From: Mycobacterium sp. 155
GTDB lineage: Bacteria > Actinomycetota > Actinomycetes > Mycobacteriales > Mycobacteriaceae
DNA: 64,000 bases
NCBI RefSeq assembly: GCF_000373905.1
Contig: NZ_KB892705.1
Span: 1,240,001 to 1,304,000 of the forward strand
Reading direction: 5' to 3'
The position numbers and the translations under genes were made by a program. Below the pieces are notes generated by a model. It was not told the DNA's origin and searched no databases. It saw nothing but the letters and a program-made list of their open reading frames with translations. The number at the start of each line of letters is the position of its first letter. The first letter of the stretch is position 1. This document shows positions 53,158 to 57,964 of the stretch, in pieces.

Positions 53158-56100
53158 CTACCTGGGAGCCAGCTTTCGCTGGGCGAGGGCCAACACTTCC
53201 TCGGTGGTCGGCGGGCTCGCGGGATGATGCGACAAGGACCACGGCGTCTTGATCTTGTGGAACGCTTCGCCTTCTGCCGCGACATAGAAAGTGCCGGCCC
53301 GCAGCCTGCTGATATCGGGCACCTCGCCGCCCTTGACCCGGGCGAACTCGACGGCGGTTGCGATCTGGGCCGGTGAGTTGAGGAAGCCGTAGACCTGTGT
53401 GGCGGCGTTGCTGGGAATCCCGGTGTTGATGCCCTTGGGCATCTGGGTGGCGTAGAGCAGCCCCAGTCCGTACTTGCGGGCCTGTGAGGACAGGGCCAGC
53501 GTGCTGCGAAGGCTGACGGTGGAGCGTCCCGAGGGCGCGAAGTTCTGCGCCTCGTCCATCACCAGCAGGCCCCCCAGCGGGCGGTCACCGGCGGGATGCC
53601 GCTTGATCCACGAGAACAGGGCCATCTGTAGCTGATTGACGAATGCCTGCTTCTGTTGGTCGCTGATCAGGCCGATCATGCTGATCACCGATACCCGCGC
53701 CCGATAGCCGTGCGACGGGGTCAACAACACTCCAGGGTCGGCGGATTCGCCCGCACCGCCGAACATATTGTCGTTGATCATCGCGACGCGCAGATTCGTC
53801 GCCAACTCCGCGGCCCGTTCCCGGGCGCCGGTCAGTGTGCTGGCTTCGTCAGGGAGGTCAGCCAGGACCCCGATGAACTCTTTCAAATCGCTGCCGGAGC
53901 GGCGTCCGTACCACTGCAGTGCCTCCTTGAGCACCGCTTGAGCGTGGGCGATCTTCGACTTGCTCCCGGTGATCAGTGCTCTGGGTTCCAGGGCGGCGAC
54001 AGCGGATTCGACTGCTTCGTTGAACTCGTCGGGAGTGTCGACGACGCTGCCGAAATCGGGCAGTGGCTGAAAAGCCAACGGACGCCCGCTCATCCGGTTC
54101 GGTGTCCACACCACCACCTCGGTGTTGTCGAGATAGTCGTGGGCCCGCGGGGTGTCCTGCGGGTTCCAGCCCGGCGGGGTTTCCGGCCACGCCACCCCGA
54201 GCCGGGACAGGTCGTTGTTCACGTCGAGGACGATCGACGACACACCGCGCAGCGCGCATTCCTCCACGATGCGCCGCAGCAGCACCGTTTTGCCCGATCC
54301 GGAACCCGCGAAGATCGCGACATGTTTGCGCAGTGCGACAAGGTCGACAGTACGAATGACCCCGCCGATGTCGTCGACGCCGAGCGGGATGGCGGTGAGA
54401 GCGATAGGTGCCTCGAAAACCGGTGCGGTTGTGGGCTCGTCGACCGCCACGTGTTCGCCCGACTCGGGTATCGGTGGTGGTGTGTCGCCGGCCTCGTCGC
54501 CGAGCGCCTCCCGCAGCAACGCGACACCGTGCGCGGGCCTGCGGGACGCAAGCCAGGCGGGCAGATGCGGGGGATTCTCATTGATCAGGTCGCGCAGTGC
54601 GGCCATGGTGCGCACGTCGTCGTCGGACATGCGCAGGGTGCGTCCGCCCGCCGCCTCGAGTTCGGCGATCATCTCCACCATCTTCTTGCCGCTCGGCCAC
54701 GCCGTATTGCGCAGGAAAAACAGCTGGCGACGCTTCGCGTCGGCGCCGAATCCTGTTGCACTCCAAGCATTTCGAATGCGACTCTGAGCTGCGACGGCGT
54801 TTGGAGCCGCGATCGCGCGAAACGCCCAGTGCCGTTCATCGTCGGTGGTGGAGTCCAGGCTCTGCCGCAGCCTGGCGTGCAGCACGGCCTTGGCGCCGGG
54901 CCCGGGGTCGACCCGGAACTCTTGCTCGCCGCCGTCGCGTTCGACGATCCAGGCGCTCAGCGCTGCCCCGAGCAGCTCGGGCACCGTGGTGTCTTCGCCC
55001 TCGGGGTCGAAGGCAGCGACGGTGACCGCCCGCCGGCGGTAATCGGCGAACCGTGCGTCCAGCGTCGCGGTTTCGTCGTCGGTCAGCACGGGCTCCGGCG
55101 GCGCTTCGTGATGCGATGACACCTGCGGGTCGGCGGTCAGGGCACGTAGCTCCTCGACGGCCCCACCGGCCAGGCACCCCCGGATGTGCGCATCGGCCCG
55201 CTTGAGTAATTGCCGCGGAGTGTAGGCAGGGGCGTCGGCGAAGGCCTCGGGCAGAATCGGCCAGCTCGGGTAGGGCGGGGCAAACCCGACAGTGGCGTAG
55301 TCGGAGGCGAACCGCCGTTCCAGGATGGCCCGACCGACCTCCGGGGTGGGCAGGCCTTGCAGCGGCGAGGTTTCCCGGAACCGGTCCTGCACCGTCGAGG
55401 TGGCGTGGCGGCGAATGCTCTCCCAGGCGGTCGGCAGGCAGGCCACGACGCCGACAGTGCGGCGCATCGTCTGCCTGATCGACATCAACCCGTGGGCGAC
55501 GTGCTCGATGTCGCGGTTGTCGGTACGTTCGTTTGCCGATTCCGTACGTTCCGTGGATTGCGCCAGCAAGGTGTCGATCTGGTCGACCGCCAGTACCGAG
55601 GGGCCCGCCAATGCCACCACCCTGGAGATGTCGCGCACGACTTCCTGGGGGGTGCCCGCCGGAGCCGGCAGCCCCCACGTGGCTCGCTCACCGGCAGGGC
55701 TGTCGGTCCCGTTGAGATAGGCGTCGCCGATGTCCTGGAGGCCGAAGTCGTTCGAGCCGGACAGCACCAGGGCACGGACCATGTGCCGGCACTGCCTCAT
55801 GGTTTCCCGGTCTACCTTGCTCAACGCGGTGATGAACCCGTCGAGCGTTTCGGGTGACACGTCGTCCTCACCGGCGATTGCGCGGCGGTCTGCCCGTGAC
55901 ACGTGCGCCAGCGACGCTAACGCCCACAGCAGATCCTTGAGCTGAGTCTCGCGGGTGCCGGGGCGTCCGAGGCTCTCCAGCATGCCTGCTCGGGCCGACT
56001 GCCAGAAGCTGGTGGCATCGAGAAGTTCGACGATGAAGAAGAAGCCGCCGCCGGTCTGCACCCGTTCCCGCACCTGACCGAGCATGTGCGTCTTACCCGA

Positions 56101-56307
56101 GCCGGCCGGACCGCGCAGTGCCACCCCGAGCGGGCTGACGTCGGGGTGGCGGACGGCGTCGGTGAACGCCGCCATCACCTCGCCGAGCGGGCCCTCGTTC
56201 AAGCCGGACACGTGCAGCGCGCCCTGGGGTCGCCATAGGTCGTCGGTGGTCGGTGCCCAGGTCAGACGCAGCGCACCGAGCGCTTCGCGGTGTACCGGAT
56301 CCATCAC
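53158..56307 (-). CDS. Large protein with two ATPase domains (AAA and HerA-like DUF87)
   Basis: A 1049-residue protein with two P-loop domains. The N-terminal AAA-type domain has Walker A GPAGSGKT (66-73) and Walker B LAVDQID (about 239-245). The middle third (about 320-640) is helical and unclassified. The C-terminal HerA/FtsK-like domain has Walker A AGSGSGKT (667-674), Walker B LLVMDEA (914-920) and the downstream YATQMPKGI motif typical of HerA-type helicases. GTG start at 56307 overlaps the stop of the upstream winged-helix gene by four bases (ATG at 56304 is also possible). No catalytic residue is missing. Expected activity: ATP-driven DNA translocation or loading, probably with the nuclease encoded upstream. 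Confidence 0.88.
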   Translation of the reverse strand: MMDPVHREALGALRLTWAPTTDDLWRPQGALHVSGLNEGPLGEVMAAFTDAVRHPDVSPLGVALRGPAGSGKTHMLGQVRERVQTGGGFFFIVELLDATSFWQSARAGMLESLGRPGTRETQLKDLLWALASLAHVSRADRRAIAGEDDVSPETLDGFITALSKVDRETMRQCRHMVRALVLSGSNDFGLQDIGDAYLNGTDSPAGERATWGLPAPAGTPQEVVRDISRVVALAGPSVLAVDQIDTLLAQSTERTESANERTDNRDIEHVAHGLMSIRQTMRRTVGVVACLPTAWESIRRHATSTVQDRFRETSPLQGLPTPEVGRAILERRFASDYATVGFAPPYPSWPILPEAFADAPAYTPRQLLKRADAHIRGCLAGGAVEELRALTADPQVSSHHEAPPEPVLTDDETATLDARFADYRRRAVTVAAFDPEGEDTTVPELLGAALSAWIVERDGGEQEFRVDPGPGAKAVLHARLRQSLDSTTDDERHWAFRAIAAPNAVAAQSRIRNAWSATGFGADAKRRQLFFLRNTAWPSGKKMVEMIAELEAAGGRTLRMSDDDVRTMAALRDLINENPPHLPAWLASRRPAHGVALLREALGDEAGDTPPPIPESGEHVAVDEPTTAPVFEAPIALTAIPLGVDDIGGVIRTVDLVALRKHVAIFAGSGSGKTVLLRRIVEECALRGVSSIVLDVNNDLSRLGVAWPETPPGWNPQDTPRAHDYLDNTEVVVWTPNRMSGRPLAFQPLPDFGSVVDTPDEFNEAVESAVAALEPRALITGSKSKIAHAQAVLKEALQWYGRRSGSDLKEFIGVLADLPDEASTLTGARERAAELATNLRVAMINDNMFGGAGESADPGVLLTPSHGYRARVSVISMIGLISDQQKQAFVNQLQMALFSWIKRHPAGDRPLGGLLVMDEAQNFAPSGRSTVSLRSTLALSSQARKYGLGLLYATQMPKGINTGIPSNAATQVYGFLNSPAQIATAVEFARVKGGEVPDISRLRAGTFYVAAEGEAFHKIKTPWSLSHHPASPPTTEEVLALAQRKLAPR

Positions 56308-56957
56308 TGCTCGATCGCGATGAGGTGCTTGTCCTGATCACCGATCGCCACCGCGGCCGATCTGTCATCGCCGGTGAGTACCTTCTGGTTCTCCTCGGGG
56401 ATCAGGTGGACGCCGGGCAGGCGATACATGTGCCGCAGTGCGGCGTCCAGCTCCATCGGGGCGAGCTGGGGGATCTCGGCACGTAGGCGTACCAGCGCAA
56501 CCCACCCCCCGGGTCGCTGTGCCAGGCGGGCGTACGCTTCGCGCACCAACTGTTCGGCATCGGCGACCGGTGACGATGCGGGGGCATCTTGCGGCCCGGT
56601 GGCCGGCGGTGCGGCGAAGACTTCCGACAGCGGCACGTCGGACCCCGAGAGGTAACGGGCCAGGCCGCGCAGCACGGTGTAGAGCGCCTTACCCTGGCCG
56701 GAGGACGACGCCGGAGCGTCACTGCCGATGATGCGGCGACACGTGGCCCAGCCGTCGTCGGTCAGTTCGTGCACCCAGCTCCGCCCAGACCGGCTGGATT
56801 CCACCAGACCCTTCTCGTTGAGCTTCACCCTGCTGTCCTTGTCAAGCCTGGGGCCCAGCTTCTCGAGCTCAGGGTTGGGCACCGCCCGGCATTCGGCCAT
56901 GAGCACCAGCAGCACCGCCTGCTGGACCCCGGTCAGCTCATCCCGATTGGTCTTCAC
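56304..56957 (-). CDS. Winged-helix protein linking nuclease and ATPase genes
   Basis: A 217-residue protein. The N-terminal helix-turn-helix resembles a MarR-like winged helix (QQAVLLVLMAECRAVPNPELEKLGPRLDKDSRVKLNEKGLVES, then SWVHELTDDGWA), and the C-terminal part (about residues 125-190) may form a second winged helix with REAYARLAQRPGGWVALVRLR and MELDAALRHMYRLPGVHLIPEENQ. No enzyme motif is seen. GTG at 56957 and its stop both overlap the neighbours by four bases, so it is made in fixed ratio with them. It could be the DNA-recognition or assembly subunit of the complex. Confidence 0.8.
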   Translation of the reverse strand: MKTNRDELTGVQQAVLLVLMAECRAVPNPELEKLGPRLDKDSRVKLNEKGLVESSRSGRSWVHELTDDGWATCRRIIGSDAPASSSGQGKALYTVLRGLARYLSGSDVPLSEVFAAPPATGPQDAPASSPVADAEQLVREAYARLAQRPGGWVALVRLRAEIPQLAPMELDAALRHMYRLPGVHLIPEENQKVLTGDDRSAAVAIGDQDKHLIAIEQ

Positions 56958-57964
56958 TGCGTATTCCCTTCAGCTCGTCTGACCGCCAGCATCCGTTCGA
57001 TCATGCCAACCACCCGTGACACATCCGCGGCTACCTCGTCGTTGGTGAACCGCAACACCGTGAAGCCGTCCAGTACCAAGGTGTTGTCGCGCCACCGGTC
57101 GGCGGCGTACTTCAGTGCGCCACGATGGTCCGGTCCGTCGATCTCGACAACGCACCGTGCCTGTGGCCACAGTAGGTCGACGCGGATGGGCCGAGCCAGC
57201 GAATGCGGCTGATAGACCTGGTTCCAGGTGCGTTCGGCCGCCCAGCCGCACCGCGCCAAGGCCTTTTCGAGGGCCTGCTCGGCGGCGCTGGCGGGGTGTG
57301 GGAGCCCGAGCAACGGCGGAAACTCGACGCGGTCGTCGGCATCGGCGGTCACTGGGCGGCACCCGCCGGGCAGCGTGACGGTGGGGAAGCGGTCCACCGA
57401 TGCCATGGCGCCGGCGAGAAGCCACACTCCAAAGCCCCCGTGAGTGGTAAGCCACTTCAGTGCTGTCGCACAGGACGCCTCATCGACGTCCTCGTCGGCC
57501 GACGCGTCGATCAGTACGGCGACATCGTCCGTGCCATATGCGGCGCACAGTGCGCGTCGCAGTCCCCGCGCCTGTAGTTCCGGGTCGTGGCGCTCGCGCA
57601 TGGGCCGGCCCAGCAGCGCAGCCTCGGCCAGGTCGGCGAGGAAAGGACCGAAATGTTCGCTGGCGGCGGCGTGCCTGCGCGCCAGCGCGCGGACCACCCG
57701 ACAGTCGAGGTCACTGGTGTGCAACATGTCAGCATCGGGAAGCCAGGACGGAAATAGCTGGCACGCAACGGTTTCCAGATGGTCGAGGAGACTGTCGACG
57801 ACGACGCGGGCAGCGCCGGGGCGCAGCCGGCAGTGGATCACCACCGGTGCTCCGGCCGGGAGTGGATCGAGCGCAACCGCGAGTTCCTCTGCGGTTGGCC
57901 CGGCCAATCGCACGACTTGACCACGAGGTATCGCAGCCCAGGGAATCGGGGCGGCAGGCCTCAC
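56954..57964 (-). CDS. DUF559/Vsr-like (PD-(D/E)XK) nuclease-domain protein
   Basis: A 336-residue protein from GTG at 57964. This start overlaps the oxidoreductase stop as GTGA; a frame continues to 58066 but runs inside the oxidoreductase. The C-terminal ~100 residues match the DUF559 endonuclease-like family: VDLLWPQARCVVEIDGPDH, then RWRDNTLVLDGFTVLRFTNDEV, giving the D...E-x-D...H pattern of the restriction-endonuclease fold. The first ~230 residues (with DLAEAALLGRP, RALCAAYGTDDVAVLIDASADED) are unclassified. It probably cuts or nicks DNA; no methyltransferase lies nearby. Confidence 0.8.
   Translation of the reverse strand: MRPAAPIPWAAIPRGQVVRLAGPTAEELAVALDPLPAGAPVVIHCRLRPGAARVVVDSLLDHLETVACQLFPSWLPDADMLHTSDLDCRVVRALARRHAAASEHFGPFLADLAEAALLGRPMRERHDPELQARGLRRALCAAYGTDDVAVLIDASADEDVDEASCATALKWLTTHGGFGVWLLAGAMASVDRFPTVTLPGGCRPVTADADDRVEFPPLLGLPHPASAAEQALEKALARCGWAAERTWNQVYQPHSLARPIRVDLLWPQARCVVEIDGPDHRGALKYAADRWRDNTLVLDGFTVLRFTNDEVAADVSRVVGMIERMLAVRRAEGNTQ

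What the first reader, a model, noticed from the sequence alone, without database searches (positions are those of the whole stretch)
53158..57964. Undescribed-looking operon: DUF559 nuclease, winged-helix protein and double-ATPase HerA-like protein
Three genes overlap by exactly four bases each (GTGA at 57961-57964, 56954-56957 and 56304-56307), so they are made together. Together they supply a nuclease fold (D...E-x-D...H of DUF559/Vsr type), a DNA-binding adaptor, and a 1049-residue motor with an N-terminal AAA module and a C-terminal HerA-type translocase. This combination resembles defence or DNA-repair machines (HerA-nuclease, BREX-type ATPases) but I do not recognise it as a named system. 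The set is inserted between xfp/polyol dehydrogenase and an Rv1869c-like gene, where M. tuberculosis has other genes.
Basis: partly seen in the sequence, partly recalled or inferred. Interest (0 to 1): 0.82.

Follow-up and report, generated by a model that had tools for sequence, protein, structure and literature searches.

The report
Core DNA motor with swappable effectors
A mycobacterium carries a two-gene DNA-motor core with a nuclease attached, and in related bacteria the same core stands beside other known or suspected anti-virus proteins instead, which suggests a modular defence machine whose function could not be tested here.

The parts
53158..56307 (-). 1049-aa ATPase: Orc/Cdc6-type AAA+ module, middle domain, HerA/FtsK translocase
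   Evidence: ORF; Pfam; AF2 model mean pLDDT 82.6, pTM 0.57; fold matches; motifs
55126..56286 (-). Orc/Cdc6-type AAA+ module, residues 8-394
56086..56112 (-). Walker A of the AAA+ module (residues 66-74)
   Evidence: K72 in 149 of 150 aligned sequences, 1 gap
55573..55596 (-). Walker B of the AAA+ module (residues 238-245): the usual Glu (recalled) is Gln
   Evidence: D242, Q243 and D245 in 150 of 150
54490..55080 (-). middle domain, about residues 410-606; elements of 438-558 run helix-strand-strand-strand-helix-strand; candidate inactive REase
   Evidence: DSSP of AF2 model; not folded or searched alone; family assignment is inference
53200..54426 (-). HerA/FtsK translocase, residues 628-1036
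56304..56957 (-). 217-aa protein, probable winged-helix DNA-binding protein (two copies by reading of the alignment)
   Evidence: ORF; weak DUF6293_C winged helix E 0.14 and 0.0011 in the Methylobacterium relative; alignment; next to the ATPase in 154 of 154 loci
56954..57964 (-). 336-aa nuclease: N-terminal P-loop-NTPase-like domain without Walker A, C-terminal DUF559 nuclease
   Evidence: ORF, start read; AF2 model mean pLDDT 91.5; fold matches
57356..57964 (-). N-terminal domain of the nuclease protein (residues 1-203), AAA+/STAND-like fold lacking a P-loop
56972..57295 (-). DUF559 nuclease domain (residues 224-331) with D263, E274-x-D276, H280
56304..56307 (-). overlap of the 217-aa gene's stop with the ATPase start
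   Evidence: ORF coordinates
56954..56957 (-). GTGA overlap, nuclease stop / start of the 217-aa gene
   Evidence: read
57961..57964 (-). GTGA overlap, ferredoxin-reductase-like gene stop / nuclease start (that neighbour is not part of the system)
   Evidence: read

Best explanation
An anti-invader machine built on a fixed two-gene core, here armed with a DUF559 nuclease. Proposed mechanism: the winged-helix protein and the Orc-type AAA+ module load the complex on DNA; the AAA+ module binds ATP but, with Gln in place of the Walker B Glu, hydrolyses it poorly and acts as a latch; the HerA/FtsK module translocates or grips DNA; the loaded complex activates or feeds an exchangeable effector. In this window that effector is a DUF559 nuclease docked through its pseudo-NTPase N-terminal domain. 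Shown here: gene order, domain folds by prediction, motif conservation, partner exchange, repeated nuclease loss. Inferred: complex formation, DNA loading, latch behaviour, trigger, and defence as the outcome.
Against: No functional data. No relative in 50,697 phage records or in IMG/VR by these scans. In mycobacteria the neighbours look like housekeeping genes, and the six genes flanking the operon in the window match no PADLOC model at 1e-10 except Lon, which matches BrxL over its protease end. Of 101 chosen neighbours of non-mycobacterial loci, none of the 25 PADLOC families shown matched more than one protein (the trypsin/STAND genes were not among the 101), so there is no strong defence-island signal. 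In 46 loci with enough upstream sequence and no partner found, 43 of them mycobacterial, the core persists; ATPase dN/dS is 0.05-0.12 in the ten pairs without nuclease, so it may do something without a linked effector. In three core-less relatives fetched, only L215 shows a tight junction; in L213 and L214 another gene lies beyond the reductase. The partner association might partly reflect the wealth of defence genes in the family of G050, and the partner labels are inherited in clades, so they are few independent events.
Confidence: 0.66

Rival explanations
1. A DNA end-processing or recombination machine like HerA-NurA: the motor pulls DNA ends and the DUF559 nuclease resects them, for the host's own repair.
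For: Best motor matches include archaeal HerA and HerA-NurA complexes; few chromosomal places in mycobacteria; purifying selection without the nuclease.
Against: Patchy: 9 of 37 genus genomes, 6 of 396 phylum genomes. The nuclease is lost repeatedly, and elsewhere trypsin-like/STAND-like, AIPR and Abi_2 proteins stand in its place, which a resection machine does not need.
Confidence: 0.14
2. Machinery of a mobile element (loading, transfer or segregation of an integrated element), not defence.
For: Orc/TnsC-type AAA+ and HerA/FtsK motors occur in transposons and conjugative systems (recalled, and PMC10853773 sections 22-23); sites with and without the core exist.
Against: No integrase or recombinase family is among the 25 of 120 Pfam families shown for 101 neighbours; few places, largely inherited with the tree; 3 of 72,556 plasmid records hold it, one of them 11.85 Mb long and one carrying the ribosomal protein cluster.
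Confidence: 0.08
3. In mycobacteria the core is a remnant or has been domesticated for another job (for instance regulation by the DNA-binding protein); the window's nuclease is a relic.
For: The D559 label in 12 of 51 rows of the clade that holds the window includes two broken copies, L047 and L074; scars in L044, L047, L069 and L081 need at least three separate losses on the tree.
Against: The window's nuclease is intact with all four catalytic residues and groups with two other D559-positive loci; the core is conserved.
Confidence: 0.12

Closest known systems
HerA/FtsK capture systems with Orc/CDC6 ATPase (PMC10853773; sections 21, 22 and 23 read in full; authors recalled: Aravind group)
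   Same: Orc/Cdc6-type AAA+, HerA/FtsK, a probable wHTH and an active REase-fold nuclease in one operon; a middle domain where an inactive REase is described
   Different: Orc and HerA fused in one chain with a DQ Walker B; the nuclease is DUF559 with a pseudo-NTPase domain; standing-in of trypsin-like/STAND-like, AIPR/AbiU, PDC-M55 and PDC-M02 is not in the sections read. The inactive REase was not confirmed. Supplementary data could not be read, so members may be listed there.
DndFGH restriction system
   Different: DndH averages 1700 residues with REase and inactive methylase domains (section 21); not so here
MADS (mad8)
   Same: C-terminal motor matches PADLOC mad8 at 1e-18, residues 639-1013
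   Different: no other mad model on the three proteins or on the six flanking genes at 1e-10
HerA-DUF4297 and SIR2-HerA (Nezha)
   Same: HerA motor plus effector
   Different: there HerA is a separate protein without an Orc module and without a wHTH partner (recalled)
HerA-NurA
   Same: HerA motor with a nuclease
   Different: NurA is RNase H-like, no Orc module, a repair system (recalled)
BREX-related capture (BRC) systems, PMC12839542 (passages only)
   Same: HerA/FtsK with Orc/Cdc6 ATPase and a DNA-binding wHTH-type protein
   Different: seven components including PglZ, DUF6079 and DUF4007; none of these among the Pfam hits of the three proteins

Membership tests
HerA/FtsK capture system, Orc/CDC6 class | Orc/CDC6-family AAA+ ATPase | tested here: met
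HerA/FtsK capture system, Orc/CDC6 class | HerA/FtsK domain | tested here: met
HerA/FtsK capture system, Orc/CDC6 class | wHTH component | tested here: inconclusive
   217-aa neighbour in all 154 loci; winged-helix assignment rests on DUF6293_C at E 0.14 / 0.0011 and on reading the alignment; no structure predicted
HerA/FtsK capture system, Orc/CDC6 class | active REase of one of two named families | tested here: inconclusive
HerA/FtsK capture system, Orc/CDC6 class | inactive REase inserted between AAA+ core and C-terminal wHTH | tested here: inconclusive
   element order of residues 438-558 fits a PD-(D/E)XK core without D..ExK; no profile link to the DUF559 domain; not folded and searched alone
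DndFGH | DndH of about 1700 residues with REase and inactive methylase | tested here: not met
   1049-aa protein; only a weak DndH match in PADLOC, E 0.026 over residues 909-959; description of DndH
MADS | multi-gene mad set around mad8 | tested here: not met
   no mad model other than mad8 on the three proteins; none at 1e-10 on the six flanking genes; genes further away not tested
BRC | PglZ, DUF6079, DUF4007 | tested here: not met
   none among Pfam hits of the three proteins at E up to 1 nor a PglZ model among the flanking genes

The most novel reading that the evidence does not exclude
A general sensor-loader for bacterial immunity: a two-protein core (winged-helix protein plus Orc-HerA double motor with a naturally latched DQ Walker B) into which unrelated effectors are plugged: a DUF559 nuclease, a trypsin-like/STAND-like receptor with WD40 repeats, AIPR/AbiU, PDC-M55 with or without Abi_2, PDC-M02. 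One genome can hold several differently armed copies (G514 has M55, M02 and DUF559 versions), and mycobacteria keep effector-less cores after deleting the nuclease.
Probability: 0.42. Interest if true: 0.8.

Novelty: new variant of a known kind. Interest (0 to 1): 0.62.

Why it matters
If true, several candidate defence families that PADLOC lists apart (PDC-M02, PDC-M55, AbiU) could be driven by one common core, which gives a direct way to find out what they sense. The invariant E-to-Q change in a conserved AAA+ module is a simple, testable statement about mechanism. The repeated loss of the nuclease in mycobacteria would show what an immune core costs or does without its effector. Annotators of mycobacteria, Rhodococcus and Micromonosporaceae would have a named unit instead of hypothetical proteins.

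Tried and rejected
Obligate triplet: rejected, D559 is in 70 of 154 loci. MADS, DndFGH and BRC membership: rejected on gene content of the operon and its six flanking genes. HTH-TPR-like protein as an alternative effector: rejected as such, since in L193 and L208-L210 it lies upstream of D559 in the same orientation, so the four loci with it but without D559 look like D559 losses. Link between middle domain and DUF559 domain by profile comparison: nothing. Viral origin: no relative. Defence-island enrichment: PADLOC on 101 neighbours gave no family shared by two proteins among the 25 shown of 85. The 101 were my choice from the 212, by nearness, with one added (L104:8321-9334); the trypsin/STAND genes and some loci (among them two in the ribosomal cluster) were left out. 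One neighbour matched PD-T4-6 and one mad6 strongly; not traced further. VIA lists were not used as evidence of absence.

Not obtained: the Foldseek search of the nuclease model (only the VIA second look, came back); the genus-wide search with 400 genomes. The family search of G050 failed three times and worked at n=80. Of its places, those in G502, G466, G491 and a partial second match in G513 were not fetched. Six short rows were dropped from the tree (L188, L190, L193, L194, L202, L208), and nine rows without a label were not in its group counts. In one search ATPases under 700 and nucleases under 200 residues were left out. In one search the reading frames are the longest ORFs, so some carry extra codons at the start. 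Literature searches; I saw titles and the openings of abstracts. None that was listed names this partner exchange, but preprints and most subscription papers are outside the library.
Full report
What is there. The window holds, on the minus strand, a nuclease gene (57964-56954, 336 aa), a 217-aa gene (56957-56304) and a 1049-aa ATPase gene (56307-53158), each overlapping the next by four bases, and the first overlapping the stop of an upstream ferredoxin-reductase-like gene in the same way. Base composition does not stand out from the surroundings. The six flanking genes match no PADLOC model at 1e-10 except Lon, over its protease end, to BrxL.

Conserved motifs. In 150 aligned ATPases (149 from the loci, duplicates included, plus the window), the AAA+ Walker A lysine is kept in 149 (1 gap), the HerA Walker A lysine in 150, the HerA Walker B D-E in 148 (2 gaps). 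The AAA+ Walker B reads D-Q-x-D in all 150: the usual catalytic glutamate (recalled) is glutamine throughout. D263, E274, D276 and H280 of the nuclease are kept in 66 of 69 (3 gaps; copies under 200 residues left out).

The conserved unit. By equal contig lengths at least four places are present twice (L019/L038, L022/L081, L025/L063, L108/L163). The 217-aa gene is next to the ATPase in 154 of 154. DUF559 is in 70: 5 of 14, 36 of 80, 29 of 60; L047 and L074 among them are broken.

What stands in its place. In 14 loci a head-to-head gene codes for a protein of about 1350 aa that I read as trypsin-like protease plus STAND-like NTPase from its motifs; WD40 repeats were confirmed by Pfam in the two tested, L091 and L103, and no protease or STAND family was among the 25 families shown for these. 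The protease motifs are altered or not found in some copies (L101, L153, L156, L158, L188, L190). In 7 loci an AIPR protein (Pfam and PADLOC AbiU in the two tested, L182 and L200) lies downstream on the same strand. In 6 loci PDC-M55A/B is upstream, five divergent with an Abi_2 protein, one (L211) on the same strand without Abi_2. In 2 loci (L189 and Kribbella L104) PDC-M02A (DUF4365) and PDC-M02B lie upstream on the same strand. These five partner types never coincide within 3 kb of the core in the 154 loci. In 4 loci only an HTH-TPR-like protein is present, which in four others precedes D559, so I count it as accessory. In 51 no partner was recognised; five of these (L025, L051, L063, L172, L191) have under 1.5 kb upstream, and a few have short downstream sequence. 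Fourteen of the 44 fetched genomes have two or three copies; by the labels twelve of the fourteen carry differently labelled ones (ten if HTH-TPR is not counted as a type), e.g. G514 with M55, M02 and D559.

Evolution. On a tree of 78 ATPases the trypsin/STAND type is one clade (support 100), M02 one (94), HTH-TPR without D559 one (100), M55 needs 2 changes, AIPR 3, D559 3; all six together 6 changes against a shuffled mean of 25.0, as low in 0 of 200; with partnerless rows counted as a state, 11 changes. So the exchanges are few and inherited. On a tree of 92 rows D559 presence needs 9 changes (8 forced by well-supported branches) against 31.1 for shuffled labels. In mycobacteria some losses left scars: nuclease fragments in L044, L047, L074 and L081 (and L022, the same place as L081) and a 17-residue trace in L069, with flanks still aligned in the pairs compared; L044 and L047 may share one loss, so these are at least three events. 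The core stays intact there, with ATPase dN/dS 0.05-0.12 in ten pairs without nuclease; the 217-aa gene evolves faster in most pairs (0.04-0.47).

Places. Many mycobacterial loci lie by the reductase, lon and phosphoketolase genes; other mycobacterial loci lie elsewhere. In L215, a relative without the core, the reductase and the gene that follows in L019/L020 (thiolase-like by my reading) are 10 bases apart; in L213 and L214 another gene lies beyond the reductase. In Tsukamurella the operon lies in the ribosomal protein cluster between rplN and rpsQ, and ribosomal protein genes, named by my reading, flank the Gordonia and ten Rhodococcus loci. Full-length copies are in 9 of 37 genus genomes (weak partial matches left out), 6 of 396 phylum genomes and 48 of 81 genomes of the family of G050. 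A relative with 35% identity is on a Methylobacterium plasmid record, with DUF559 and a 217-aa-type gene.

How it most likely works. The core loads on DNA through the winged-helix protein and the Orc-type module; the DQ Walker B suggests ATP binding without fast turnover, a latch; HerA moves or clamps DNA; the effector is switched on. In this window the effector cuts DNA. Only the anatomy, conservation and exchange are shown; loading, latch, trigger and outcome are inferred. The partners carry the defence argument: AIPR/AbiU, Abi_2, PDC-M55 and PDC-M02 are annotated as defence or candidate defence families, a family name being annotation and not a test.

Compared with what is known. PMC10853773 (sections 21, 22 and 23 read in full; passages elsewhere) predicts HerA/FtsK capture systems that combine Orc/CDC6, inactive REase, active REase, HerA/FtsK and wHTH, with the idea that they intercept invader DNA. 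The window fits that kind on Orc and HerA and has an active-looking nuclease; the nuclease's family, the inactive REase and the winged helices are open. The exchange of whole effector modules and the invariant DQ are not in the sections I read. PMC12839542 and PMC7159879 were seen as passages only. I therefore rate it a new variant of a known kind that has so far been predicted from genomes.

Limits. Partner families were found with models built from these same loci and confirmed by Pfam or PADLOC on representatives only. Association could partly follow from defence-rich genomes. Nothing here measures function.

Noticed in passing
L083, L085, L086, L089, L093, L094, L098, L099 (downstream of the ATPase): In eight Rhodococcus loci a gene of one family lies on the same strand, median 34 bases downstream of the core; the one tested, in L086, is TerD + AIM24. 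TerD is a stress/conflict domain (recalled).
   Followed up: partly
L083:1128-9579: Two pairs of the 217-aa-type gene and the ATPase in tandem in one Rhodococcus locus, one with DUF559.
   Followed up: no
L030:13281-18249: In Tsukamurella the operon sits in the ribosomal protein cluster between rplN and rpsQ beside VapBC and a DEAD-box helicase; Gordonia (L110) and ten Rhodococcus loci have ribosomal protein genes beside it too.
   Followed up: partly
L102:14026-16653: An Eco57I-type methylase gene about 0.8 kb beyond the ATPase, on the other strand, in Paractinoplanes deccanensis.
   Followed up: no
L066:8289-9353, and L023, L056: In one mycobacterial group the core lies between a DUF7159 gene (Pfam on L066) and a macrodomain-like gene (by reading).
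   Followed up: no
L166, L204, L205, L207: HTH-TPR-like protein of about 700 aa upstream of the core where DUF559 is missing; in L193 and L208-L210 it precedes DUF559; role unknown.
   Followed up: partly
L192:1943-3481: A CBS-domain protein of 512 aa directly downstream of a core with no recognised partner; possible further partner type.
   Followed up: no
window:60768-63122: The Lon gene next to the operon matches the BrxL model (1.4e-16) over residues 613-774 only, the shared protease end; not a BREX sign by itself.
   Followed up: partly
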